Assembly (NCBI RefSeq): GCF_900156655.1
Contig: NZ_FTOG01000005.1
Location: 62,001-126,000, forward strand
DNA: 64,000 nt
Source: Rhodobacter aestuarii
GTDB taxonomy: Bacteria; Pseudomonadota; Alphaproteobacteria; Rhodobacterales; Rhodobacteraceae
Direction: 5' to 3'
Numbering within the stretch: the stretch's first letter is position 1; each line of letters starts with the position of its first letter. The notes under the pieces are model-generated. The model worked only from the letters and a program-made list of their open reading frames with translations. It searched no databases and had not been told where the DNA came from. Below are positions 27,933-40,725 of the stretch, piece after piece. A program made the position numbers and the translations under genes.

Positions 27933-29077
27933 AGCTGTTCCTCCTCGCCGGTGAAGCCTCGGGGGATAAGCTTGGTGCTGCGCTGATGGCGGCGATGAAA
28001 GACCTCGCGCCCGGCGTGGAATTTGCCGGGATCGGCGGGCCGGAGATGGAGGCCGAGGGGCTGACAAGCCTGTTCCCGATGCAGGAGCTGTCGGTGATGG
28101 GCATTGCCGAAGTGCTGCCCAAATACCGCGCCTTGAAGCGCCGCATTGCCGAGACCGCGCAGGCGGTCAGTGCCTTTGCCCCCGATGCGCTCATCACCAT
28201 CGACAGCCCCGATTTTTGCCTGCGCGTTGCGCATTTGGTGAAAGAAGCCAATCCCGCGCAGAAAACCGTGCATTATGTGGCGCCCTCTGTCTGGGCATGG
28301 CGGCCAAAGCGCGCGACCAAAATGGCGAAAGTGATCGACCATGTGCTCGCCCTTTTGCCCTTTGAGCCGCCCTATATGACCGCAGCCGGGATGAGTTGCG
28401 ATTTTGTCGGCCATCCGGTGGTGGCAGAACCCCGCGCCACTGAGGCCGAGGCGGCCGAGTTTCGCGAAACCTTCATGATCGGCCCTGATCAGCCCTTAGC
28501 TCTGTGCCTGCCCGGCTCGCGCGCGGGGGAGGTCAAACGCCTTGGCCCGCGTTTTGACGAGGCGCTGATGCGGCTGCGTGACCGTGAACCGGGGCTGCGC
28601 GTTGTGGTGCCCACGGTCAAAGGCGTGGCGAAACTGGTGCGCGATATGACGGCGCGCTGGCCCGTTGCGCCGATTGTGGTGGAGGCCACGGCCGACAAAC
28701 GCGCCGCCTTTGCTGCGGCGGATCTGGCGCTCGCGGCCTCTGGCACCGTCAGCCTCGAATTGGCCGCGAGCCGCACACCGATGGTGATTGGCTATGACGC
28801 CAATTTTCTGTCGTGGCATATTATCTCGCGGCTCTTGCGGGTGGATACGGTGACGCTGGTCAACCTCGTGTCTGAGACCCGCGCCGTGCCCGAATTCCTT
28901 GGCCCCGCCTGCAAGCCCGGCGCGATGTCGGGCGCGCTTTTGGAACTGCTCGAAAACCCCACCAAACGCAAAGCGCAGCTAGACGCGATGGAGCGCACCA
29001 TGCAGCGCCTTGGCGCGGGCGGCGAGCCACCGGGGCTGCGCGCGGCGCGCTCTGTTTTGGCGTTTTTGAACCGTTAG
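27929..29077 (+). CDS. lpxB: lipid-A-disaccharide synthase LpxB
   Basis: 382 aa GT-B glycosyltransferase. LLAGEASGDKLGAALM at the N-terminus, SVMGIAEVLP, the VAPSVWAWRPKRATKM motif, DFVGHPVV, CLPGSRAGEVKRL and ALAASGTVSLELAA. It joins lipid X and UDP-diacyl-GlcN. Start is the ATG overlapping the lpxI stop. Its stop codon overlaps the stop of the convergent pxpA gene by four bases, leaving no room for a terminator. Confidence 0.95.
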   Translation: MKLFLLAGEASGDKLGAALMAAMKDLAPGVEFAGIGGPEMEAEGLTSLFPMQELSVMGIAEVLPKYRALKRRIAETAQAVSAFAPDALITIDSPDFCLRVAHLVKEANPAQKTVHYVAPSVWAWRPKRATKMAKVIDHVLALLPFEPPYMTAAGMSCDFVGHPVVAEPRATEAEAAEFRETFMIGPDQPLALCLPGSRAGEVKRLGPRFDEALMRLRDREPGLRVVVPTVKGVAKLVRDMTARWPVAPIVVEATADKRAAFAAADLALAASGTVSLELAASRTPMVIGYDANFLSWHIISRLLRVDTVTLVNLVSETRAVPEFLGPACKPGAMSGALLELLENPTKRKAQLDAMERTMQRLGAGGEPPGLRAARSVLAFLNR

Positions 29078-29811
29078 AACCGCGCGAGCGTCACTCCCGC
29101 CGCTTGCAATTGCGCGCGCAAGGCCCGCGCCATTTCCAGCGCTTCGGCAGTATCTCCATGCAGGCAGATCGTGTCGATCTTCGCCGGGATCCGATGGCCG
29201 CTTTTGGCGATGATTGCGCCCGCGCGCAGCATCGTCAAAATCCGCTCTGCGGCGGCGCCGGCGGCATGCAGCACCGCGCCGGGCAGGGAGCGGTCCATGA
29301 GCGTCGCATCATCATTATAGGTGCGGTCGGCGAAAATCTCGCCCACCCAAGCGGCCTCCATCTCGCGCGCTGCGGCTTCTTGCGCGGTGGCGGCGAGCAC
29401 CATGATTTTCAGGTCCGGCACTACGTCGAGCGCGGCTTTGTAGCAGGTGCGTGCAAGGGCGGCATCTTCGGAGGCCATATTGGCCAGCGCCCCGTGCAGC
29501 TTGAAATGATTGAGCTTTAGCCCGTTGGCCTGCGCCACCGCCTGCATCGCCCCGGTTTGATAGGTGATGAGGTCAGTGATTTCGTTCACGCTCAGCGCCA
29601 TCCGCGTGCGGCCAAAATTCGCCCGGTCGTCAAAGCCCGGATGCACGCCCAGCCCAACGCCTTTGTCCGCAGCCATCCGCAGCACCCGCGCCATCTCAAG
29701 CGGCCCGCCCGCATGCAGCCCCGCGCAGATGTTGGCCGAGGTCACCACATCGCAAAGCGCATCGTCCGCCCCCGCGCCTTCGCCCATATCGGCATTCAGA
29801 TCGGTGTTCAT
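29074..29811 (-). CDS. pxpA: 5-oxoprolinase subunit PxpA
   Basis: 245 aa, LamB/YcsF family, deacetylase-like TIM-barrel fold. N-terminal MNTDLNADMGEGAGADD carries the metal-binding Asp/Glu pattern; SANICAGLHAGGPLEM, GVHPGFDDRANFGR and NHFKLHGALANM are family motifs. With PxpB/C it hydrolyses 5-oxoproline (pyroglutamate) to glutamate using ATP. Last gene of a six-gene coupled run; its ATG overlaps the pxpC stop (ATGA). Confidence 0.93.
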   Translation of the reverse strand: MNTDLNADMGEGAGADDALCDVVTSANICAGLHAGGPLEMARVLRMAADKGVGLGVHPGFDDRANFGRTRMALSVNEITDLITYQTGAMQAVAQANGLKLNHFKLHGALANMASEDAALARTCYKAALDVVPDLKIMVLAATAQEAAAREMEAAWVGEIFADRTYNDDATLMDRSLPGAVLHAAGAAAERILTMLRAGAIIAKSGHRIPAKIDTICLHGDTAEALEMARALRAQLQAAGVTLARF

Positions 29812-30821
29812 AGATCCTCCTCATCGCCGCGCACCACGCCCGAGATCAGTTGGTAACTGAGCAGATCGGCAATGTCATGGGGGTCACGGATCAGCGGTTG
29901 CAGCGCTTTGCGAAGCTGGGCAAGGAGGGCGGGTTCTTCGGGCGAAAGCGCCTCTGCCTCTGCGAGCGTGACCGGGGCAAGTCGCAGCGCCGTGCCGGGG
30001 CGGGCTTGCGCGGCAATCGGCAGATCGGCGGGGATCACCGTGCCCAATCGCGGATAGCCGCCAATGCTTTGACAGTCCGCGAGCAAGATCGTGGGTTGGC
30101 CGGAGCCGGTGGTTTGCACATCGCCCGGCGTGATGAAATCCGATAAAAGCCCCGCCGTTTGGCTGGCAAAGGGCGCGCCCTCATGCGTCAGCGCCACGCC
30201 TTGACGGCTGCCAGCGCCTGCGCGAAACGGGGTGGCAAAGGCGCGGGTGCGGGTCGCTGCATCAAACAACTCTGTCTGTGGCCCCGGCATCACGCGCAAG
30301 ATGCCGCCTTGGAAACGCGGTTCAAGCGGCAGGCGCTGCGCGGGGGTATCGGGCGCAGGGTCGGGACCGAGGGGGAGGCACATGCCCGCGTTCACCACCG
30401 TGCCAAGTCCGGCGCTTGCCAGCGTCGCGCGCGCCCCGAGTTGCAATGGCGTGGCAATGCCACCGGCAAAGGAGATGTAGCCATAAATTCCCGCCTCTGC
30501 GGGGCCGATTTCCAGCACCTCGCCCGGCGCTAACGTGTGGCTTGCGTTCCAAAGCAGCGCGCGGCCTGCAAGGCTTGCCCGCATCGGTGCGCCGGTCAGC
30601 GCGATGCGGGTGGGGCAAGTCGCGCGAAACCGTCCGCCGGTGAGCGGCATTTCCAAACAAGCTTGCGGGGTGGTATGGTCCAGAAGCGCTGCTGCCTCCC
30701 ATAAAGCGCGGCGATCTGCGGCCCCGCCGATGGAAAGGCCAAGCGCGGTGAAACCGGGCCGCCCGAGGTCTTGGACGGTGATTTGTGACGTGACCGCAAG
30801 CACTTCGAGCGCATTCGTCAT
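29808..30821 (-). CDS. pxpC: 5-oxoprolinase subunit PxpC
   Basis: 337 aa, biotin-dependent-carboxyltransferase-like (KipA/YbgK) domain. Motifs QDLGRPGFTALGLSIGGAAD, the LEMPLTGGRF strand and YISFAGGIATPLQLGARATL. Together with PxpB it phosphorylates 5-oxoproline for PxpA. ATGA overlaps on both sides. The end is slightly extended compared with YbgK. Confidence 0.92.
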   Translation of the reverse strand: MTNALEVLAVTSQITVQDLGRPGFTALGLSIGGAADRRALWEAAALLDHTTPQACLEMPLTGGRFRATCPTRIALTGAPMRASLAGRALLWNASHTLAPGEVLEIGPAEAGIYGYISFAGGIATPLQLGARATLASAGLGTVVNAGMCLPLGPDPAPDTPAQRLPLEPRFQGGILRVMPGPQTELFDAATRTRAFATPFRAGAGSRQGVALTHEGAPFASQTAGLLSDFITPGDVQTTGSGQPTILLADCQSIGGYPRLGTVIPADLPIAAQARPGTALRLAPVTLAEAEALSPEEPALLAQLRKALQPLIRDPHDIADLLSYQLISGVVRGDEEDL

Positions 30822-31540
30822 TTCGGAAAACTCCGAATGGCGCCACCCATCGGGTCACCCGTGGCCTCAAGCGCGCTGATTTCCGCCTCAGTCGCCTCTG
30901 TGAACCGCAGCCGATCACCGGGGCGCAGTAGAAACGGGTCTTCGGCCCCCGGTGCAAAGGGGCGCAAAGCGCAGCGGCCAAGCGCGCGCCAGCCTGTTGG
31001 GGAGGTTTTGGCAAAAAGCACGATCTGGCGGATCGCGGTGGTGATCGTGCCCGGCGCGACTTGGGGGCTGAGGTCCGGCATGCGCGGCATGTCCCAATGC
31101 GCCGGGAGCATCCCCAGATAGGGCTGGCCGGGGGCGAAGCCCAAGGCGAGCACGCGTAACTCCATGTTGCAAAGCTCTGAAATGATGTCTGTTTCGCTGC
31201 GCCCAGCCCGTTGTGCGACCTCGATGAGTTGCGGGCCAGCAGTGCCGCCAAAGCAGGCGGGCACCAGAAAATGCCGCGGCGCGGGCAGGCGTGGCGCGGG
31301 GGCGGCGAGACGTTCTTGCAGCGCGCTCACAAGGTCCGCCCGCGCGGTTTCGCTGCGCAGAAAACGCAGCAAAACAGAGCCAAGCCCCGGCGCAACCTCG
31401 CATTGTCCGGGCAGCGGATCGGCCTCAAGTGCGGCGGCCAAAGCTTGTGCGGCAAGGTTTGCATCGTCGGAAAACTGGGTCGTAAAGCGCACCAGCACCC
31501 CATCGAGACCGAGGGGCAGAATTTCGGGGGTGTCAGGCAT
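30818..31540 (-). CDS. pxpB: 5-oxoprolinase subunit PxpB
   Basis: 240 aa, KipI/YbgJ (allophanate hydrolase subunit 1) family. FLVPACFGGTAGPQL, the LRVLALGFAPGQPYLGML motif and the ATPTGW-like KTSPTGWRALGRC are recognisable. Start is the ATG that shares one base with the stop of the transglutaminase gene (TGATG), with GGAAG upstream. This junction ties the oxoprolinase genes to the peptide-modification genes. Confidence 0.92.
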   Translation of the reverse strand: MPDTPEILPLGLDGVLVRFTTQFSDDANLAAQALAAALEADPLPGQCEVAPGLGSVLLRFLRSETARADLVSALQERLAAPAPRLPAPRHFLVPACFGGTAGPQLIEVAQRAGRSETDIISELCNMELRVLALGFAPGQPYLGMLPAHWDMPRMPDLSPQVAPGTITTAIRQIVLFAKTSPTGWRALGRCALRPFAPGAEDPFLLRPGDRLRFTEATEAEISALEATGDPMGGAIRSFPK

Positions 31541-32421
31541 CAATCTTCCAGCGGCAGCACATCGACCGATTGGCTGGTATCGGCCCCACCTGCCGAGCGC
31601 AACGCCCCGCGCACCGGGGCCACATCATCATAATCGCGCCCGACGGCGACGGTGATGTAATCTTCGCCCGCCGGTTGGTCATTCGTCGGGTCATATTCGA
31701 TCCAGCCCATTTCCCGGCCCGCCCAAGCGCGTACCCAAGCATGCATCGCATCCGCGCCTTCAAGCCGGGGTTCGCCCGGCGGCGGGAAGGTGCGCAAAAA
31801 GCCCGAGACATAACCCGCCGGAATGCCAATGCCGCGCAAAGCCGCAATCATCACATGAGTGAAATCTTGGCACACGCCGCGCCGGTTCACGAAAGCCTCG
31901 CGCATTGGCGTGTCAACGGTTGTGGCCTCGGCATCAAAGGTCATGCGGTGGTAAAGCGCGTGGCCAATTGCGGCAACGGCAGAGGCCGCCGTGGCATTGC
32001 GCGGGCAGGCGGCGCGGGCAAAGGCGGTGATTTCGGAACAGGGGGTCACGCGCGGCGAGGCGCCCAGAAAGTGATGCGGGGCCGCAGGCGAAAGCGTCAT
32101 CTCGGCGGTGATCTCGGCTTGCAGGTCATGCAGTGGCGGCGAAAGATCCAGTGGTTCGGGCGCGGCCAAGCGGTCCACCCGTGCGCTAAGTTCAAATTGC
32201 GCCTCGGCCACCGGGTGATGCCACGCCACCGAGGTCATCCAATTGCCAAAGAAATCCGGGAGGTCACGGCGTTCTTCGGGGGTAGGGGTTACGGTGAGCC
32301 GCCGGGTCCAGACCCGCTGGCGCCCCGGTATTTCGGCTGGCAACAGCCGCAGCAGGTTGCGCAAATGGTCCGAGGGAGCGGCATAGGCGTAATCAATGCT
32401 CAGGCGGATATCATAGCGCAT
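31540..32421 (-). CDS. transglutaminase-like cysteine peptidase family protein
   Basis: 293 aa. An N-terminal beta domain (Bact_transglu_N; MRYDIRLSIDYAYAAPSDHL) is followed by the papain-like core with the triad Cys in RRGVCQDFTHVMIAALRGIG, His in GADAMHAWVRAW and Asp in IEYDPTNDQPAG. Bacterial relatives are thought to be peptidases rather than cross-linkers. I start at the ATG at 32421 behind GGTGAG; a GTG at 32430 would overlap the upstream stop. No signal peptide, so cytoplasmic. It always accompanies ATP-grasp/alpha-E genes, as here. Confidence 0.88.
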   Translation of the reverse strand: MRYDIRLSIDYAYAAPSDHLRNLLRLLPAEIPGRQRVWTRRLTVTPTPEERRDLPDFFGNWMTSVAWHHPVAEAQFELSARVDRLAAPEPLDLSPPLHDLQAEITAEMTLSPAAPHHFLGASPRVTPCSEITAFARAACPRNATAASAVAAIGHALYHRMTFDAEATTVDTPMREAFVNRRGVCQDFTHVMIAALRGIGIPAGYVSGFLRTFPPPGEPRLEGADAMHAWVRAWAGREMGWIEYDPTNDQPAGEDYITVAVGRDYDDVAPVRGALRSAGGADTSQSVDVLPLED

Positions 32422-32426
32422 GGGGC

Positions 32427-34838
32427 TCACCGCAGATAGCGTTGCGAAACGAGGTTTGAGACATCGGCCAATTCGCCGCGCATCTCAATCAGCCGTTCCG
32501 TGGTGATATCATCAGGGCTTGCCACCGAAAGCAGGCTTTCGACCGGCACGATGGCCCGCGATAGTGCCGCCAAGCGCCCCTTTTCGCGTGCATAGGGCAG
32601 ATCGGCGGCCAAAGTGCGCAGCCGCCCCACTTGGAACAGAAGCGAGCGTGGGTTGTCGCCATCAAGGGCAAGCAGGTCCACCACCGTGTCGCGCGATCGC
32701 TCCATCCGGTAGCGGCGCTGATGGGTGATCACGCTGTCGCCCACTTCAATCGCGATATCAAGCGCCCCGGTTGGCGCACCGGGGTCGGCAAAGGTGGCAA
32801 GCACGGCGGAAAGCGCATCGGCACGTTCAAGCGCGCGACCAAAGCTGAGGAAGGTCCACCCTGAGAAGCGATACATATTTTCATGCACAAGACCAGAAAA
32901 CCCGGTGATCTTGCGCAACAGCACCGACATGGCGCGGGCGGAATCATCGCCCGGCTGCGCGGTTTGGTGCATTTGCCGCGCGGTTTTCGCCAAATCTCCA
33001 AGCGCCGACCAACCATCGGTCGAGAAACGGTCGCGCACCTTAGAGGCGCAGGCCCGCGCGGCCTCAAGCCGGTCAATCAAGGCGCTTGGCACCGGCTCTT
33101 TCAGGTCGATCCCATAGCCTTCAAGGAAGTGCCGCAACAGTCGCAGCCGCGCATCTTCGGTGTTGTCGGTGGCGGCAAGGCGCAAATGATAGGCGCGGAT
33201 CAGCCGGATCGCATCTTCGGTGCGTTCCACATAGCGCCCGAGCCAGAACAGGTTATCCGCCGCACGGGCGGGCAAAATACCGGGCGAGGCGCGGCGCACC
33301 CCGCGCGAGGGGCGCGGCAACAGCGTGTCTTGGCGCACCGGGCGGTCGCCCACCACCCAGACATCGGCCACTGCACCGCCGCGCTGCATGGCCAGCGCGG
33401 TCGTGTCGCCCGAGCGGCCAATTCGGGCATAGCCGCCCTTCATAAAGATCCAACGGCCATTGGCATCGCGCGCGGCAAAGACCCGTACCGTCATCGGGCG
33501 CGGCTCAATTCGGTGTTGGCCTTCGCCCGTATCCACCCATGCGGGCGTGGTCGAAAGCGTCACCGCCTCTTGGCCGACCAGCATGTTGCCTTCTGCCTCC
33601 AGCCATTCGGCAATCGAGGCGCGGGCCGAGCCCCGGAACGCACCGCCAAGCGCGGTGGTGGCGCCCAGATCAAAGGGCAGATCGCAGGCATAGGCCGAGC
33701 CGATCATCATGTGTTCGGCATTGTCGCGTACATAGGCGCGCTCGGACCCGCCGCCGCACCACCAAGTCGCGATATTGGGTAGCTTGAGCGGCCCGCCGGT
33801 CAGCACCTGACAGATGCGCGGCATGAAGGCGAGCATGGCGCGCATCTCAAGCACACCCGAACCCAGCGCATTGACCATCGCCAGATTGCCCGCGCGCACC
33901 GCCTCTACCAGCCCCGGCGTGCCGATACGGGAGGTGGCGTCAAGCTCCACCGGATCGGCGAAGGTCGCGTCAATGCGGCGCCACAAAACGCCCAAAGGCT
34001 GCGGGCCTTCGATGGTGCGCACCATTGCTTGCGCGTCTTGCACCAAAAGATCTTCGCCTTCCAAAAGCGGCAAGCCCAGATAGCGCGCGATATAGGTATG
34101 TTCGTAATAGGTGTCGTTCGAGGGGCCGGGGGTCAGGATCGCCGTCGCCCGTTCGCGCCCGCCGCTGCCTTGGGCCACTTGTTCGAGCGCTGCACGAAAG
34201 GCGCCGAAATAGCCCGCAAGGCGGTGGATATGGGCGCGTGGAAACCGTTCGGGGAAAATCCGGCCTGTGGCCATGCGGTTTTCCAGCGCGAAGCCCGCGC
34301 CAGAGGGCGCATTGGTGCGATCGCCGAGCACGAACCAGCCGCCATCGGGCGAGCGGCCAATTTCAAAGGCGATCACATGCAGGTAATGCCCGCCGCGCGG
34401 GGTCGCCCCCACCATCGGGCGCAGCCATTGTTTGGAGCCGGCAATCAGTTCGGCGGGCAAATGGCCGTCGCTGACCAATTTGCCGGGGCCGTAAAGATCG
34501 GCCACCACCGCTTCCAGCAAATCCGCGCGTTGCGTGAGCCCGGCGCAGATCGTGTCCCATTCCTTTTCATGCAAAATGACCGGGATATGCGAGAGCGGCC
34601 AAGCGCGCTCGCTCAGCGGCTCGTTCGAATAGTGGCGAAAGAACACCCCGGCATCGCGCAGATATTGATCGGCGCGTTCAAACCTCGCCGTGACCTCGGC
34701 CGGGGAGAGCCGTGCGAAACGATCCACAAAGCGGCGCCACACGGGGCGCATTTCGCCCGCGGCATCAAACAGTTCATCCGCCACCCCCGGACGAAGGTGA
34801 TAGGCCTCAAACAGATTGGGGGTGGGGTTGGCGGTCAT
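32427..34838 (-). CDS. circularly permuted ATP-grasp ligase fused to alpha-E domain
   Basis: 803 aa. Residues about 1-500 are a circularly permuted ATP-grasp domain (former DUF404/DUF407; AYHLRPGVADELFDAAGEMR, GDRTNAPSGAGFALENRMAT, ILTPGPSNDTYYEHTYIARY). Residues about 522-803 are an alpha-E helical domain (DUF403; LPARAADNLFWLGRYVERTE). In many genomes these are two genes; here they are fused. Comparative genomics of amidoligases predicts that such pairs make a peptide or peptide tag with the neighbouring transglutaminase peptidases. No substrate is proven. 18 bases separate it from the 1147-aa gene. Confidence 0.88.
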   Translation of the reverse strand: MTANPTPNLFEAYHLRPGVADELFDAAGEMRPVWRRFVDRFARLSPAEVTARFERADQYLRDAGVFFRHYSNEPLSERAWPLSHIPVILHEKEWDTICAGLTQRADLLEAVVADLYGPGKLVSDGHLPAELIAGSKQWLRPMVGATPRGGHYLHVIAFEIGRSPDGGWFVLGDRTNAPSGAGFALENRMATGRIFPERFPRAHIHRLAGYFGAFRAALEQVAQGSGGRERATAILTPGPSNDTYYEHTYIARYLGLPLLEGEDLLVQDAQAMVRTIEGPQPLGVLWRRIDATFADPVELDATSRIGTPGLVEAVRAGNLAMVNALGSGVLEMRAMLAFMPRICQVLTGGPLKLPNIATWWCGGGSERAYVRDNAEHMMIGSAYACDLPFDLGATTALGGAFRGSARASIAEWLEAEGNMLVGQEAVTLSTTPAWVDTGEGQHRIEPRPMTVRVFAARDANGRWIFMKGGYARIGRSGDTTALAMQRGGAVADVWVVGDRPVRQDTLLPRPSRGVRRASPGILPARAADNLFWLGRYVERTEDAIRLIRAYHLRLAATDNTEDARLRLLRHFLEGYGIDLKEPVPSALIDRLEAARACASKVRDRFSTDGWSALGDLAKTARQMHQTAQPGDDSARAMSVLLRKITGFSGLVHENMYRFSGWTFLSFGRALERADALSAVLATFADPGAPTGALDIAIEVGDSVITHQRRYRMERSRDTVVDLLALDGDNPRSLLFQVGRLRTLAADLPYAREKGRLAALSRAIVPVESLLSVASPDDITTERLIEMRGELADVSNLVSQRYLR

Positions 34839-34856
34839 GGCTCACATCTTTTTGCC

Positions 34857-37800
34857 TCACTCAAGCCCGATGGGGCGGCGCAGGTCAAGCGTCAACGGAA
34901 ACTCCGGATGTGGCACCTCGGGGGCTGGGGTATAACTGCCACCGCTATGGCCATATGGTTCAAACCGCGCCAAGCGCCGTGCCTCAGCCTCATAGGCATT
35001 GACGGGGAAGGTGTCATAATTGCGCCCACCGGGATGCGCGACGTGATAGGTGCAGCCCGCCAAAGCGCGCCCGGTCCATGTGTCATAGATGTCAAAGACC
35101 AAGGGCGTGTTGACCGGCAATACAGGATGCAAAGCGGCGGGCGGTTGCCACGCTTTGAACCGCACCCCCGCGACCGAAGTGCCAGAGGTTTGCGTGCGCG
35201 CAAGCGGCACCGGGCGTTGGTTGCACATCACGGTGTAACGGTCTTGGTGCAGCGAGGTCAGTTTCACCTGCAACCGCTCAACCGAGCTATCGGTGTAGCG
35301 CACCGTGCCGCCAATCGCGCCGGTCTCGCCCAGCACATGCCAAGGCTCTAAAGCTTGGCGCAGTTCCAGATGCACGCCCTCGGCCTCCACCTGCCCGCAG
35401 AAGGGGAAGCGGAATTCAGATTGCGCCTCAAACCAGACCGGGTCGAAGTCAAAGCCATGCTGGCGCAGATCGGCAAGCAGGCTCAGCAGGTCTTCCCACA
35501 GGTAATGCGGCAGCATGAAACGGTCATGCAGCACTGTGCCCCAACGCACGGGGCGGCCCTTCACCGGCGCATTCCAGCACCGCGCGATGAGCGCGCGGAG
35601 AAGCAGTTGCTGGGCAAGGCTCATGCGCGGATGCGGCGGCATTTCAAAGCCACGGAACTCCACGAGCCCGAGCCGCCCTGTGGGGCCATCGGGGGAGTAA
35701 AGCTTGTCGATGCAAATCTCGGCGCGATGGGTGTTGCCGGTCACATCAATCAGCATGTTGCGTAGCAGCCGGTCCACCAGCCACGGCGGCGGCAGCGGGC
35801 CACCCCCCACCGGATCGCCAATTTGCGACAACGCGATTTCCAGCTCATAAAGCGTGTCGTGGCGCGCCTCATCAATGCGCGGGGCTTGGGAGGTCGGGCC
35901 GATGAACAGGCCCGAGAACAGATAGCTCAGGCAAGGATGGCGCTGCCAAATCAGTATCAGCGATTTCAGCACATCGGGGCGGCGCAGGAACGGGCTATCA
36001 TTCGGCGTTGCGCCCCCCACAACCACATGGTTGCCGCCCCCCGTTCCGGTATGGCGGCCATCAATCATGAATTTATCCGCGCCAAGGCGGGAATTGCGCG
36101 CCTCTTCATAAATCGCCTCGGTGGTGGCGACGCAATCTTCCCACGAATGCGCGGGGTGGATGTTCACCTCGATCACGCCGGGGTCGGGGGCGACGCGGAT
36201 CACGTTGAGGCGCGGGTCATGCGGCGGCGCGTAGCCTTCGATATGAATGGGCAGGTTCAACTCTTCCGCCGTCGCCTCGGCGCTGGCGATCAGATCCAGA
36301 TAATCTTCCAGCGTGTCGCAAGGCGGCATGAAGAGGCAAAGTTTTCCGTCGCGCGGCTCCAGCGTCAGCGCCGTGCGCACCGCGCCGCCCGATGGGTCTG
36401 TGCCCGCGCCCAGATGCGTGTCTTGCGGCTGCATTGCTTGGCGTTCGGCCTCTGGCGCACCGGGGATCGACCCCTGCGCATGGCCGGGCGTGACAGGGGG
36501 CAGCATTGCCTCCCGCTCGGCTTCCTCTTGCGCCAAACGGTCAATTTCGGCCTGCACCGCGCGGCGGCGCTCGGCCACGGCGGCGTGGAAATCGGGCAGG
36601 GGGGCCAGCTCCACCGTCGGGTCCGCCGGGTAAGCATAGGGGTAGGCGGCAGGCGGAATATAGGGCAGCGCGCCTAAAGGCAGCCGGAAGCCCACCGGGC
36701 TATCGCCGGGAATGAGGAAGATATGCCCGCGCCGGGGTTTCCACAGCTCCGAGCGCCAGCGCGCAGGCTTGTCGGCGGCTTGCCACATCGGCTGAATGGG
36801 CAACACATAGCCAGAGGGTTCGGTGAGGCCACGGTTGAAGACCTTCGCGTAACGCGCGCGATCTTCTGGGTTTTTCAGCTTTGAGTTCTGCGGCGAGACA
36901 TTCGGCGGCAGGTTCGCTTCTTTCAAGATCCACTCGCCGGGATCTTCATAGGCAGGTTGGGCAAAGGCCGGGTCTAGGCCCAATTTCTCGGCAAAGGTGG
37001 CCATGAATTGACCGGCCTCCTTCGCCCCCAAGGGCTGGGGCGCGGCCTCGTGCGCGACCAAATCGGGGTTGCGCCAGACCGGCTGGCCATCGCGGCGCCA
37101 GTAGAGCGAAAAGGTCCAACGCGGCAGGCTTTCGCCCGGATACCACTTGCCTTGGCCGTAATGCAAAAAGCCGCCCGGCGCGAAGCGATGCCGCAAGCGG
37201 CGGATCAGATCATCGGCGAGGCCGCGTTTTTGCGGCCCGACCGCTTTTGTGTTCCATTCCGCCGATTGGAAATCATCCACCGAGACGAAAGTGGGCTCGC
37301 CCCCCATCGTGAGCCGCACATCGCCTGCAGCAAGCGTTTCATCGACTTTGCGGCCAAGCGTGTTGAGCCGATCCCATGCCTCATCGGAAAACGGCTTGGT
37401 GATGCGTGGGTGTTCGGCCACGCGTTTGACCTGCATGTCAAACTCAAAGCCGACCTCCGGCGCACCCGCCGAGGAAAAGCCCCCCGCAATCGGCGCGGCA
37501 TTGCGGTAATGCGGCGTGGCGGCCAGCGGAATATGGCTTTCCCCCGCCAGCAGGCCCGAGGTCGGGTCCAGTCCCACCCAGCCCGCGCCGGGCAGGAACA
37601 CCTCAACCCAAGCATGCAGATCGGTGAAATCCACCTCGGTGCCAGAGGGGCCATCGAGCGCTTTCACATCAGGGGCGAGTTGGATCAGATAGCCCGAGAC
37701 AAAGCGCGCCGCAAAGCCCAAGTGGCGCAACACCTGTACCAAAAGCCAAGAGGAATCACGGCACGAGCCAGAGGCTTTTTCCAGCGTTTCATCAGGTGTT

Positions 37801-38300
37801 TGTACGCCCGGCTCCATGCGGATCGTGTAATTCACCTCGTTCGAGATGCGCGCATTCAGCGCGACCAGAAAATCTACCGTGCGGGTTTGGGTAAAATCCA
37901 CCGTGCCAATGAATTGCGCGAGCCGCGGGCCCTCGGGTTCGGGCGTGCGATAGATGCTCAGGTCTTCGCGCAGCTCCTCAGGGTAGTCAAAGGGCCAAAG
38001 CTCGGCGCTTTCCTCCAAGAAGAAGTCAAACGGGTTATAGACCGTCATATCAGCGACCAGATCGACCTCGATCTTGAATTCCGTCACCGGCTCGGGGAAC
38101 ACAAATCGCGCCAGCCAATTGCCATAGGGGTCTTGCTGGTGGTTCACAAAATGCCCGCCGGGGCTCACCTTCAGGCTGTGCGAAATCACCCGCGTGCGCG
38201 AATGCGGTGCCGGGCGCAGCCGGATGATTTGCGGGCCCAATGTCACCGGGCGGTCATAAGTGTAATGTGTAAGGTGATGAATGGATGCGTGGATCGCCAT
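34857..38300 (-). CDS. transglutaminase-like domain fused to DUF2126 amidoligase
   Basis: 1147 aa. Residues 1-320 repeat the transglutaminase plan: [20 protein letters not shown] at the N-terminus, Cys in [20 protein letters not shown], His in [11 protein letters not shown], Asp in [10 protein letters not shown]. The rest is DUF2126, classed as a putative amidoligase with a glutamine-synthetase-like fold ([53 protein letters not shown]). A Glu/Arg coiled insert (about 590-650) separates two parts of DUF2126. Start ATG at 38300 gives the family-typical MAIHASIHH; the frame runs further upstream into the regulatory region. First gene of the six-gene run. Confidence 0.9.
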
Positions 38301-38426: not shown

Positions 38427-38512
38427 CATTTTTGCCGGAGCACACGTAAAAAGCGATGCTGCAAATGCAAAAACGTGCTAGCGTAAGGCATCGCACCAGG
38501 GGAGGAATTGCG

Positions 38513-38869
38513 ATGGTTAAGGCACCCACTAAGACTGAGACGACAGCTTCGGTGATGGATGCGTGGTCGATGATGTTCGCACCACAAGCGCGTATGGCCG
38601 AGGCGATGATCGGGCAAAATATCGAAATGCTCGATTTCATCAAAACCCGGTTCGAGCGGGACAAGGCGATGCTTCGCGAATTGGCCGAGGCGTCTGATCC
38701 GATCGAAGCGGCAAAGCTTTGGCAAGATTTTTGGAGCCGGTTGTTCACCGATTATTCGGTGGAAACGACTAAGCTGGCTTCGCATGCCGGAGAGATTGCC
38801 GAAACGGCCTTGCGCAGCGCCACCGAGGAGGGCGCGGCGCTCATGACGATGGTCGCCAAAAAGGCTTGA
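38513..38869 (+). CDS. phaP: phasin family protein
   Basis: 118 aa, almost entirely helical and amphipathic, with the phasin-like spacing MIGQNIEMLDFIKTRFERDK and LWQDFWSRLFTDYSVETTKL. No signal peptide. Phasins coat polyhydroxyalkanoate granules. The ATG follows GGGGAGG. The gene precedes phaC by 104 bases, with a hairpin between, which would allow the coat protein to be made in excess over the synthase. Family assignment rests on composition and context. Confidence 0.75.
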   Translation: MVKAPTKTETTASVMDAWSMMFAPQARMAEAMIGQNIEMLDFIKTRFERDKAMLRELAEASDPIEAAKLWQDFWSRLFTDYSVETTKLASHAGEIAETALRSATEEGAALMTMVAKKA

Positions 38870-38910
38870 GCTAAGCTCCCCCACAGGGGCTCTCACGTCT
38901 TGCAAAGGAA

Positions 38911-38946
38911 AGGGGCGGGCGGTTCGCCGCCCCCCGAAATATCGGG
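38911..38946 (+). terminator. G/C-rich hairpins between phasin gene and phaC
   Basis: GGGGCGG (38912-38918) pairs with CCGCCCC (38927-38933); a second small hairpin CCCGA-AATA-TCGGG follows (38933-38946). No T-run, so probably partial termination or 3' end protection of the phasin mRNA. Confidence 0.4.
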
Positions 38947-38973
38947 CGTGCCCGCCCGTTTCACGAGGAAGAC

Positions 38974-40725
38974 ATGACTGCCCCTGCAAAGATCCGCCCC
39001 GAGGCGGAACCGGCACTGGATGAAGCCGGTTTCCGTCGTTTCGACCGTATGGTTCACGCTCTGATGGGCAAGGCAGAGGGGGGGCTTTCACCAGTCTCTC
39101 TGTGGCTGGCTTGGGCAGATTGGGCCTCGCATATGGCGATGAGCCCGGGCAAACAGGCCGAGGTCGGCTTTAACGCCATGGCGCGCGCGCAAAAACTGGC
39201 GGCAGAGGTGCAATGCCAGTTGAAAGGCGGGCGGCTTGATGGCGAGGCTTGTGTGGAGCCGATCAAATCTGATCGCCGCTTTGCGAGCCCCGATTGGCTG
39301 ACTTTTCCCTATTCCCTTTACGCCCAAGGCTTTTTGGCCACGCAAGCTTGGTGGCAAGAGACCGCGACCGGGCTTTCGGGCGTTGAGAAAAAGCACGAGC
39401 AATTGGTGGAGTTTTACGGGCGGCAAATGCTCGACATGCTGTCGCCTTCGAACTTTTTGGCCACCAACCCCGCACTGATCGCCCGCACCCAAGAAGAGGG
39501 TGGGCAGAACCTTGTGCGCGGCTGGAAACATATGGCCGAAGACATGCGCCATGCGCTTTTCCATGACGAAGAGGCCCCCGCCTTTACCCCCGGCGAGAAT
39601 GTCGCCGTGACTGACGGCAAGGTGGTGTTCCGCAATCGGTTGATTGAGCTGATCCAATACACCCCGGTCACCGATAAGGTGCATCCGGTGCCGCTGATGA
39701 TCGTGCCGGCGTGGATCATGAAATACTATATCCTTGATCTGACGCCGCCCGAAAGCCTGATTGGCTGGCTCGTGGAGCAGGGCTTTACGGTCTTCTGCAT
39801 CAGCTGGAAAAATCCCGAAGAAAACGACCGAGATCTTGGGTTTGACGATTACCGCGAATTGGGCGTGATGGCGGCGCTCGATGCGATTGGCAAAATCACC
39901 GGTGCGCCGAAGGTGCATGGGCTTGGCTATTGCTTGGGCGGCACGCTCCTTTCGGTGGCCGCCGCTGCGATGGCGCGGGATGGCGATGATCGTCTTGCCT
40001 CGCTTACCATGCTCGCCGCGCAGGTGGATTTCACCGAAGCGGGGGAATTGAGCCTCTTCACCAATGAAGACCAGCTTGCCCTTCTGGAAGATATGATGTG
40101 GCAAGAGGGGTTCTTGGACAAATCCGCGATGGCGGGCACCTTCTCGATGCTGAAATCGAAAGACCTAGTGTGGTCCAAGATGGTGCATGATTACATGCTG
40201 GGTGAGCGCGATGCCGCCTCGGCGCTGGGGGCTTGGTCGCAAGATGCGACGCGGATGCCCTATAAGATGCATTCGGAATATCTGCGCCATCTGTTCTTGA
40301 ACAATGATCTGGCTGACGGTCGGATGGAGGCGGGCGGCGCGCATGTGATGTTGCGCGACGTGCGCTGCCCGGTTTTTGCCGTGGCCACCGAAAACGACCA
40401 TATCGCGCCATGGCATTCGGTCTTCAAACTGACATGGCTGATGGGGGGCGAGGTGAGCTTCGCGCTGGTTTCGGGTGGGCATAACACCGGGATTGTTGCG
40501 CCGCCCGGCAGCCCGCGCGCCAAATATCGGCTGCTCACCCATGTGCATGGCCAGCCGCATCCCGGCCCCGAAGATTGGGCCGGTGCGGTGGAAAAAGTCG
40601 CGGGTTCGTGGTGGGGCGCTTGGGGCGAATGGCTGCGCGCCAAAGGCGGTGGCGAAGAAATCACGCCCCCCGCGCTTGGCAAAAGCCTTGGCGCGGCCCC
40701 AGGGCGCTATGTGCTCGGCCGCTAA
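38974..40725 (+). CDS. phaC: class I poly(3-hydroxyalkanoate) synthase
   Basis: 583 aa. The N-terminal domain (about 1-215) is followed by the alpha/beta-hydrolase core: lipase-like box GLGYCLGGTLLSVAAA with the catalytic Cys, Asp in ATENDHIAPWHSVFKL, and the catalytic His in SGGHNTGIVAPPG. VPAWIMKYYILDLTPPESLI and the following QGFTVFCISWKNP are class I landmarks. It polymerises (R)-3-hydroxyacyl-CoA on granules. phaA/B, phaZ and phaR are not in the window. Confidence 0.95.
   Translation: MTAPAKIRPEAEPALDEAGFRRFDRMVHALMGKAEGGLSPVSLWLAWADWASHMAMSPGKQAEVGFNAMARAQKLAAEVQCQLKGGRLDGEACVEPIKSDRRFASPDWLTFPYSLYAQGFLATQAWWQETATGLSGVEKKHEQLVEFYGRQMLDMLSPSNFLATNPALIARTQEEGGQNLVRGWKHMAEDMRHALFHDEEAPAFTPGENVAVTDGKVVFRNRLIELIQYTPVTDKVHPVPLMIVPAWIMKYYILDLTPPESLIGWLVEQGFTVFCISWKNPEENDRDLGFDDYRELGVMAALDAIGKITGAPKVHGLGYCLGGTLLSVAAAAMARDGDDRLASLTMLAAQVDFTEAGELSLFTNEDQLALLEDMMWQEGFLDKSAMAGTFSMLKSKDLVWSKMVHDYMLGERDAASALGAWSQDATRMPYKMHSEYLRHLFLNNDLADGRMEAGGAHVMLRDVRCPVFAVATENDHIAPWHSVFKLTWLMGGEVSFALVSGGHNTGIVAPPGSPRAKYRLLTHVHGQPHPGPEDWAGAVEKVAGSWWGAWGEWLRAKGGGEEITPPALGKSLGAAPGRYVLGR

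What the first reader, a model, noticed from the sequence alone, without database searches (positions are those of the whole stretch)
29074..38300. A peptide ligase/peptidase set is translationally wired to 5-oxoprolinase
Sequence: six minus-strand genes run 1147-aa transglutaminase/DUF2126 fusion, 803-aa ATP-grasp/alpha-E fusion, transglutaminase, pxpB, pxpC, pxpA. Junctions are 18 bases, 5 bases, one shared base (TGATG), and two ATGA overlaps. Knowledge: DUF2126 and circularly permuted ATP-grasp are predicted amidoligases; PxpABC turns pyroglutamate into glutamate. Inference: the two ligases and two peptidases build and clip a (gamma-)glutamyl-type peptide or tag whose breakdown releases pyroglutamate, which PxpABC recycles. 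I do not recall this link being described.
Basis: partly seen in the sequence, partly recalled or inferred. Interest (0 to 1): 0.78.

Follow-up and report, generated by a model that had tools for sequence, protein, structure and literature searches.

The report
Peptide-ligase cassette fused to 5-oxoprolinase operon
In one group of Rhodobacter-like bacteria, a known but poorly understood peptide-making gene cassette is followed without a gap by the genes that recycle pyroglutamate; the two look like neighbours through one old change of gene order rather than parts of one pathway, because each half is found, kept and lost without the other.

Summary
In detail: six minus-strand genes (38300-29074) with the stated sizes, domains and junctions. 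The first three are a conserved cassette: transglutaminase/DUF2126, circularly permuted ATP-grasp/Alpha-E, transglutaminase (TG). The last three are a pxpBCA (5-oxoprolinase-type) unit. The order is not peculiar to this strain: pxpB lies directly behind TG in 11 of 17 cassette-bearing genomes of the genus (18 searched). Elsewhere it was not seen: 0 of 15 other Pseudomonadota genomes holding both DUF2126 and PxpA, and 34 of 49 cassette genomes lack PxpA; co-occurrence is not above chance (p = 0.44). Within the genus each half also occurs alone at the same site beside lpxB, and trees are compatible with one ancestral placement and later losses. The overlapping TG/pxpB junction is confined to the seven closest species. 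Structure models point DUF2126 towards glutamine synthetases (moderately) and the ATP-grasp part towards glutathione synthetases, so a glutamyl peptide stays chemically possible, but nothing shown links it to pyroglutamate. Best reading: two known units sharing one transcription unit in one lineage.

The parts
34857..38300 (-). Transglutaminase-like domain fused to DUF2126 (putative amidoligase), 1147 aa
   Evidence: Pfam PF08379/PF01841/PF09899; model of residues 270-1147 pLDDT 75.4, pTM 0.76; fold matches to glutamine synthetases
32427..34838 (-). Circularly permuted ATP-grasp ligase fused to Alpha-E helical domain, 803 aa
31540..32421 (-). Stand-alone transglutaminase-like cysteine peptidase or transamidase (TG), 293 aa; Cys184, His227, Asp244
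   Evidence: PF01841/PF08379; the three residues invariant in 30 of 30 aligned
30818..31540 (-). pxpB-like (CT_C_D); its ATG shares one base with the TG stop codon (TGATG)
   Evidence: PF02682; below the TIGR00370 equivalog cut-off; relatives 5dud YbgJ, 2phc
29808..30821 (-). pxpC-like (CT_A_B), ATGA overlap with pxpB
   Evidence: PF02626; below the NF045499 cut-off; relative 5dud YbgK
29074..29811 (-). pxpA (LamB_YcsF), ATGA overlap with pxpC; the only PF03746 match in this genome
   Evidence: PF03746; NF003814 above cut-off; single match in own genome
27914..29077 (+). lpxB, convergent and overlapping pxpA by 4 bases; landmark of the locus in 18 of 18 genus genomes
   Evidence: LpxB; TIGR00215 above cut-off; synteny

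Best explanation
Two known, functionally separate units share one transcription unit in one lineage. (1) The DUF2126 / ATP-grasp-Alpha-E / transglutaminase cassette: two ligases activate a carboxylate as an acyl phosphate and join it to an amine to build an unknown peptide or amide, and the transglutaminase-type cysteine enzymes cleave or transfer it (inferred from folds and family; product unknown). (2) pxpBCA: PxpB/PxpC phosphorylate 5-oxoproline and PxpA opens it to glutamate, a general salvage of the 5-oxoproline that arises spontaneously from glutamate and glutamine (inferred from family). In the ancestor of this genus pxpBCA came to lie between the cassette and lpxB; in the R. capsulatus group the gap then closed to an overlap (inferred from the trees). 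The consequence is probably co-transcription (inferred), not a shared pathway.
For: No pxp hit in 76 of 80 cassette loci, within the stretch held (9 of the 80 hold under 2.5 kb behind TG and one has no TG), and in 20 of 20 diverse Pseudomonadota stretches. 34 of 49 cassette genomes outside the genus lack PxpA; of the 15 with both, 12 have them on different contigs and 3 on one contig, nearest 64 kb. Co-occurrence over 159 genomes: odds ratio 1.36, p = 0.44. In the genus, cassette-lpxB without pxp in 6 genomes, and pxpBCA-lpxB without the cassette in G006; the same in Pseudothioclava, which was not among the 18. Locus-type pxp is one clade (100/99); the adjacency label needs 4 changes on the cassette tree against 8.4 shuffled. 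The pxpB/C overlap is present in 7 of 7 pxp units examined without the cassette. 5-oxoproline forms spontaneously, and B. subtilis pxp mutants accumulate it (PMC13274462, passages seen).
Against: The arrangement is kept in 11 of 17 cassette-bearing genomes of the genus, down to about 74% identity of the ATP-grasp protein (L004), and the junction is an overlap in seven species, which could reflect selection for co-expression. In this genome the operon carries the only PxpA. All 6 genus genomes that lack pxp at this site keep at least one PxpA elsewhere. The two ligase folds resemble those of enzymes that make glutamyl compounds. No transcript data were available.
Confidence: 0.72

Rival explanations
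1. One reading: ligases build a (gamma-)glutamyl peptide or tag, the transglutaminase-type peptidases cut it, pyroglutamate is released and PxpABC recycles it.
For: Glutamine-synthetase-like fold for DUF2126, moderate, glutathione-synthetase-like fold for the ATP-grasp part, intact Cys-His-Asp in the separate TG, conserved gene order in 11 genomes.
Against: No PxpA in 34 of 49 cassette genomes outside the genus, adjacency in 0 of 15 with both; chance-level co-occurrence; either half found alone at the same site in the genus.
Confidence: 0.08
2. Side-product repair: an amidoligase of glutamine-synthetase type forms gamma-glutamyl phosphate that cyclises to 5-oxoproline when no acceptor is at hand, and the co-expressed PxpABC returns it to glutamate.
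For: Glutamine-synthetase-like fold. A review describes autocyclisation of gamma-glutamyl phosphate of gamma-GCS to 5-oxoproline and its return to Glu by OPLAH (PMC10741565, passages seen).
Against: The substrate of DUF2126 is unknown; the cassette lives without PxpA in 34 of 49 genomes outside the genus; the same review says there is currently no evidence for either proposed 5-oxoproline source in glutathione-synthetase deficiency.
Confidence: 0.08
3. Selected co-regulation without a shared metabolite: both units serve nitrogen or amino-acid salvage and profit from one promoter in this genus.
For: Retention in 11 genomes and overlapping junction in seven; Anbu of the related operon is reported up under nitrogen limitation (PMC5666114 and PMC6376114, passages seen); 5-oxoproline can serve as nitrogen source in B. 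subtilis and C. glutamicum (PMC13274462, passages).
Against: Either half is missing alone in several genomes; lpxB stays at the same site in 18 of 18 genus genomes whatever its neighbour, so slow reshuffling alone could explain retention.
Confidence: 0.12

Closest known systems
DUF2126 / ATP-grasp-Alpha-E / transglutaminase peptide-synthesis cassette (this domain set is credited by later papers to Iyer et al. 2009, which is not held and was not read; that it covers DUF2126 is recalled)
   Same: Same domains, same order, short gaps: in the 80 loci the gap before the ATP-grasp gene has median 18 bases and the gap before TG median 4 (79 values each, the first including two spurious pairings).
   Different: Here followed by pxpBCA; that extension was seen in one genus only.
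Anbu operon (ATP-grasp, Alpha-E, transglutaminase, Anbu)
   Same: Related ligase, Alpha-E and transglutaminase domains.
   Different: No Anbu here; ATP-grasp and Alpha-E are fused and DUF2126 is added. The same genome holds a separate four-gene Anbu operon (L104).
PxpABC prokaryotic 5-oxoprolinase
   Same: All three subunit families, contiguous, in B-C-A order with overlaps.
   Different: PxpB and PxpC score under the NCBIfam equivalog cut-offs; neither direct neighbour of the unit is a transporter gene, unlike pxpTABC of C. glutamicum (PMC13274462, passages).
RloABC of Pseudomonas aeruginosa
   Same: ATP-grasp protein, transglutaminase-domain protein and peptidase in one operon (PMC12239564, passages).
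   Different: RloB is an inactive membrane-bound transglutaminase and RloA a secreted retropepsin; the word alpha-E does not occur in that paper's text.

Membership tests
DUF2126 / ATP-grasp-Alpha-E / transglutaminase cassette | The three proteins with their domains in one same-strand run | tested here: met
DUF2126 / ATP-grasp-Alpha-E / transglutaminase cassette | Conserved together in other genera | tested here: met
   All three proteins in 77 of 80 loci (missing: DUF2126 in L033 and L035, TG in L078, all at contig ends). Fused-type ATP-grasp hit over 300 bits beside DUF2126 in 18 of 20 diverse stretches.
DUF2126 / ATP-grasp-Alpha-E / transglutaminase cassette | Peptide or amide ligase and peptidase activity | not testable with these tools
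   Only fold and residue evidence
Glutamine-synthetase superfamily (DUF2126) | Catalytic-domain fold | tested here: inconclusive
Glutathione-synthetase-like ATP-grasp ligases | Fold of the ATP-grasp part | tested here: met
PxpABC 5-oxoprolinase | LamB_YcsF + CT_C_D + CT_A_B encoded together | tested here: met
PxpABC 5-oxoprolinase | NCBIfam equivalog score for PxpB and PxpC | tested here: not met
   94.4 against 145.55 and 139.7 against 500; PxpA passes a subfamily model, 270.1 against 226. Hence called PxpABC-type only.
PxpABC 5-oxoprolinase | ATP-dependent 5-oxoproline hydrolysis | not testable with these tools
   needs an assay or a growth test
Anbu operon | Anbu gene in the operon | tested here: not met
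   None among the six genes; the genome's two PF00227 matches lie on other contigs

The most novel reading that the evidence does not exclude
In this genus the operon encodes a bacterial gamma-glutamyl cycle for an unknown compound: a glutamine-synthetase-fold ligase and a glutathione-synthetase-fold ligase make a glutamyl peptide, two transglutaminase-fold enzymes cut or transfer it, and PxpABC returns the 5-oxoproline formed by cutting or by cyclisation of gamma-glutamyl phosphate to glutamate; elsewhere the same cassette relies on unlinked or unrelated 5-oxoprolinases.
Probability: 0.1. Interest if true: 0.7.

Novelty: new variant of a known kind. Interest (0 to 1): 0.3.

Why it matters
I know of no established product of this cassette (recalled; no held paper contains the word DUF2126). 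If pyroglutamate release could be tied to it, the substrate problem would become testable by 5-oxoproline measurements in a genetically tractable species of this genus. If not, as the comparison suggests, the case warns that translational overlap in one genome and its relatives may be one historical event and weak evidence for a pathway.

Tried and rejected
Rejected: one-strain artefact (pxpB directly behind TG in 11 of 17 cassette-bearing genus genomes). Rejected: Anbu as part of this operon. Rejected: a general cassette-pxp link in Pseudomonadota.

Literature: no held paper contains the word DUF2126. Of the 6 held papers with at least 3 of YcsF, 5-oxoprolinase, transglutaminase, ATP-grasp and amidoligase, none contained YcsF or 5-oxoprolinase. 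Other searches. Iyer 2009 and Niehaus 2017 are not held, so I cannot say that the link was never noted there. Of the papers cited I saw passages only (also 84 and 85, which did not help).

Weak spots: the cassette tree is a 'quick' tree under a simple model, and counts of changes cannot tell gain from loss. In one search four distant second-copy rows served as outgroup, some with short matched pieces, and the program warned of long branches meeting; the clade of locus-type pxp is starred, its inner order partly open. My simple gene caller was poor on this high-GC DNA and was not used for conclusions. In one search the DUF2126 query paired with the TG gene in L033 and L035, which lack DUF2126, so two of the first-gap values are probably spurious; L042 and L049 have about 2 kb between DUF2126 and the ATP-grasp ORF.

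Full report
Observation. The window lies in a 3.84-Mb genome (G000, contig C7). By protein similarity it is a Rhodobacter close to strain TJ_12: 93% identity of the 803-aa protein. The three downstream genes are of the PxpB, PxpC and PxpA families, but PxpB and PxpC fall under NCBIfam's equivalog cut-offs, so 5-oxoprolinase activity is a family-level inference.

What the first half is. DUF2126 / ATP-grasp-Alpha-E / transglutaminase (TG) is a conserved cassette. In the best 80 loci kept from public genomes all three proteins are present in 77; the three exceptions lie at contig ends. Gaps are short: median 18 bases before the ATP-grasp gene and 4 before TG, 79 values each, two of the first probably spurious. 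In 20 diverse Pseudomonadota stretches, 18 show a fused-type ATP-grasp hit above 300 bits near DUF2126, and 7 of the 20 also carry a second ATP-grasp hit of 219-242 bits, the size seen for the Anbu-type protein of this genome (236 bits). That recurring neighbour shows that the method can find linkages; pxp was in 0 of the 20. Papers describe the related Anbu operon as a putative peptide-synthesis or tagging system and credit Iyer et al. 2009 (PMC5666114, PMC6376114, PMC3597751; passages), which is not held. In one of them the ATP-grasp protein of an Anbu operon released phosphate from ATP, but no Anbu peptidase activity and no specific interaction of the operon's proteins was found (PMC6376114).

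What the second half is. pxpBCA with the 4-base pxpB/pxpC overlap occurs without the cassette beside it in 7 of 7 units examined (G005, G006, G008, Pseudothioclava, Celeribacter, Thioclava, Tropicimonas). Hence the internal overlaps say nothing about the cassette. 5-oxoproline arises spontaneously from glutamate and glutamine, and B. subtilis pxp mutants accumulate it (PMC13274462, passages), so a cell needs no special source to keep pxp.

How far the link reaches. All 18 genomes returned for the genus were searched: 18 have PxpA and 17 have DUF2126. In 11 of these 17 pxpB lies directly behind TG: G000, G001, G002, G003 (R. capsulatus), G007, G009, G011, G012, G014, G015, G016. In G014 and G015 the rest of the pxp unit was found at the end of another contig. 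In the other six (G004, G005, G008, G010, G013, G017) TG converges directly on lpxB without pxp, and PxpA is elsewhere in the genome. G004 and G013 were read from loci L008 and L005, whose genomes show the same PxpA places. In G006 DUF2126 is absent and pxpBCA converges on lpxB. Pseudothioclava, not among the 18, also has pxpBCA beside lpxB while its cassette is on a different contig. lpxB is at this site in 18 of 18 genus genomes (in G014 and G015 beside pxpA on the second contig), so slow reshuffling by itself preserves neighbours here.

Outside the genus. Of the 80 loci four carry pxp within the stretch held: L002, L003, L004, L007, all genus members (contig lengths and places). Nine of the 80 hold under 2.5 kb behind TG (L002 among them) and one has no TG, so absence is tested in 70, of which three carry pxp. 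Of 160 Pseudomonadota genomes 50 (own included) have DUF2126; of the 49 others, 15 have PxpA: 12 on a different contig from DUF2126, 3 on the same contig, nearest 64 kb. PxpA is in 43 of 160. Without the own genome the two-by-two table is 15, 34, 27, 83: odds ratio 1.36, p = 0.44. Genomes are related, so this p is a rough guide, but there is no sign of coupling.

History. On the tree of the three cassette proteins (25 rows) the adjacency label needs four changes, against 8.4 for shuffled labels: adjacent species are clustered but interleaved with others. On the PxpBCA tree (22 rows) the locus-type pxp, including G006 and Pseudothioclava, forms one clade (100/99), and the stand-alone pxp of G005 and G008 lies outside it. 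G006, without the cassette, is sister to G007, which has it. The simplest account is one ancestral order, cassette-pxpBCA-lpxB, followed by separate losses or moves of either half; the counts do not prove the direction. The TG-pxpB junction is an overlap of 1 or 4 bases in the window and six relatives, the R. capsulatus group, and a gap of 31-45 bases in G007, G011, G012 and G015.

Verdict. The coupling is real as gene order and probably as a transcript in one genus, but the comparison speaks against a general pathway from ligases through peptidases to pyroglutamate. The folds leave a glutamyl-peptide version open, and the side-product idea (gamma-glutamyl phosphate cyclising to 5-oxoproline, described for gamma-GCS in PMC10741565, passages) is the most reasonable metabolic form of it. 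I give either metabolic form about 8%. Within the held library I found no mention of the link in the listings and passages seen; two key papers are not held, so this is not proof of absence.

Noticed in passing
window 29074-29077: pxpA (minus) and lpxB (plus) overlap convergently by 4 bases at their stop codons.
   Followed up: partly
L104 9697-13668 (G000 contig C9): The same genome carries a separate four-gene Anbu operon (ATP-grasp, Alpha-E, transglutaminase, Anbu) besides the DUF2126 cassette.
   Followed up: partly
L036, L048, L054, L161, L162, L164, L165, L167, L168, L172: In these loci the DUF2126 cassette lies within the same stretch as a second, Anbu-type ATP-grasp hit, a recurring neighbourhood that may mean joint function of the two sets.
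   Followed up: no
L042, L049 (Amaricoccus): About 2 kb lie between DUF2126 and the ATP-grasp ORF, unlike the usual gap of some 18 bases.
   Followed up: no
window 38456-40725 (+): A phasin ORF (38456-38869, PF09361 29 bits over the cut-off 24.9) and a PhaC-family PHA synthase (38974-40725; NCBIfam class I model 516 bits, under its cut-off 623) lie upstream and divergent from the cassette.
   Followed up: no
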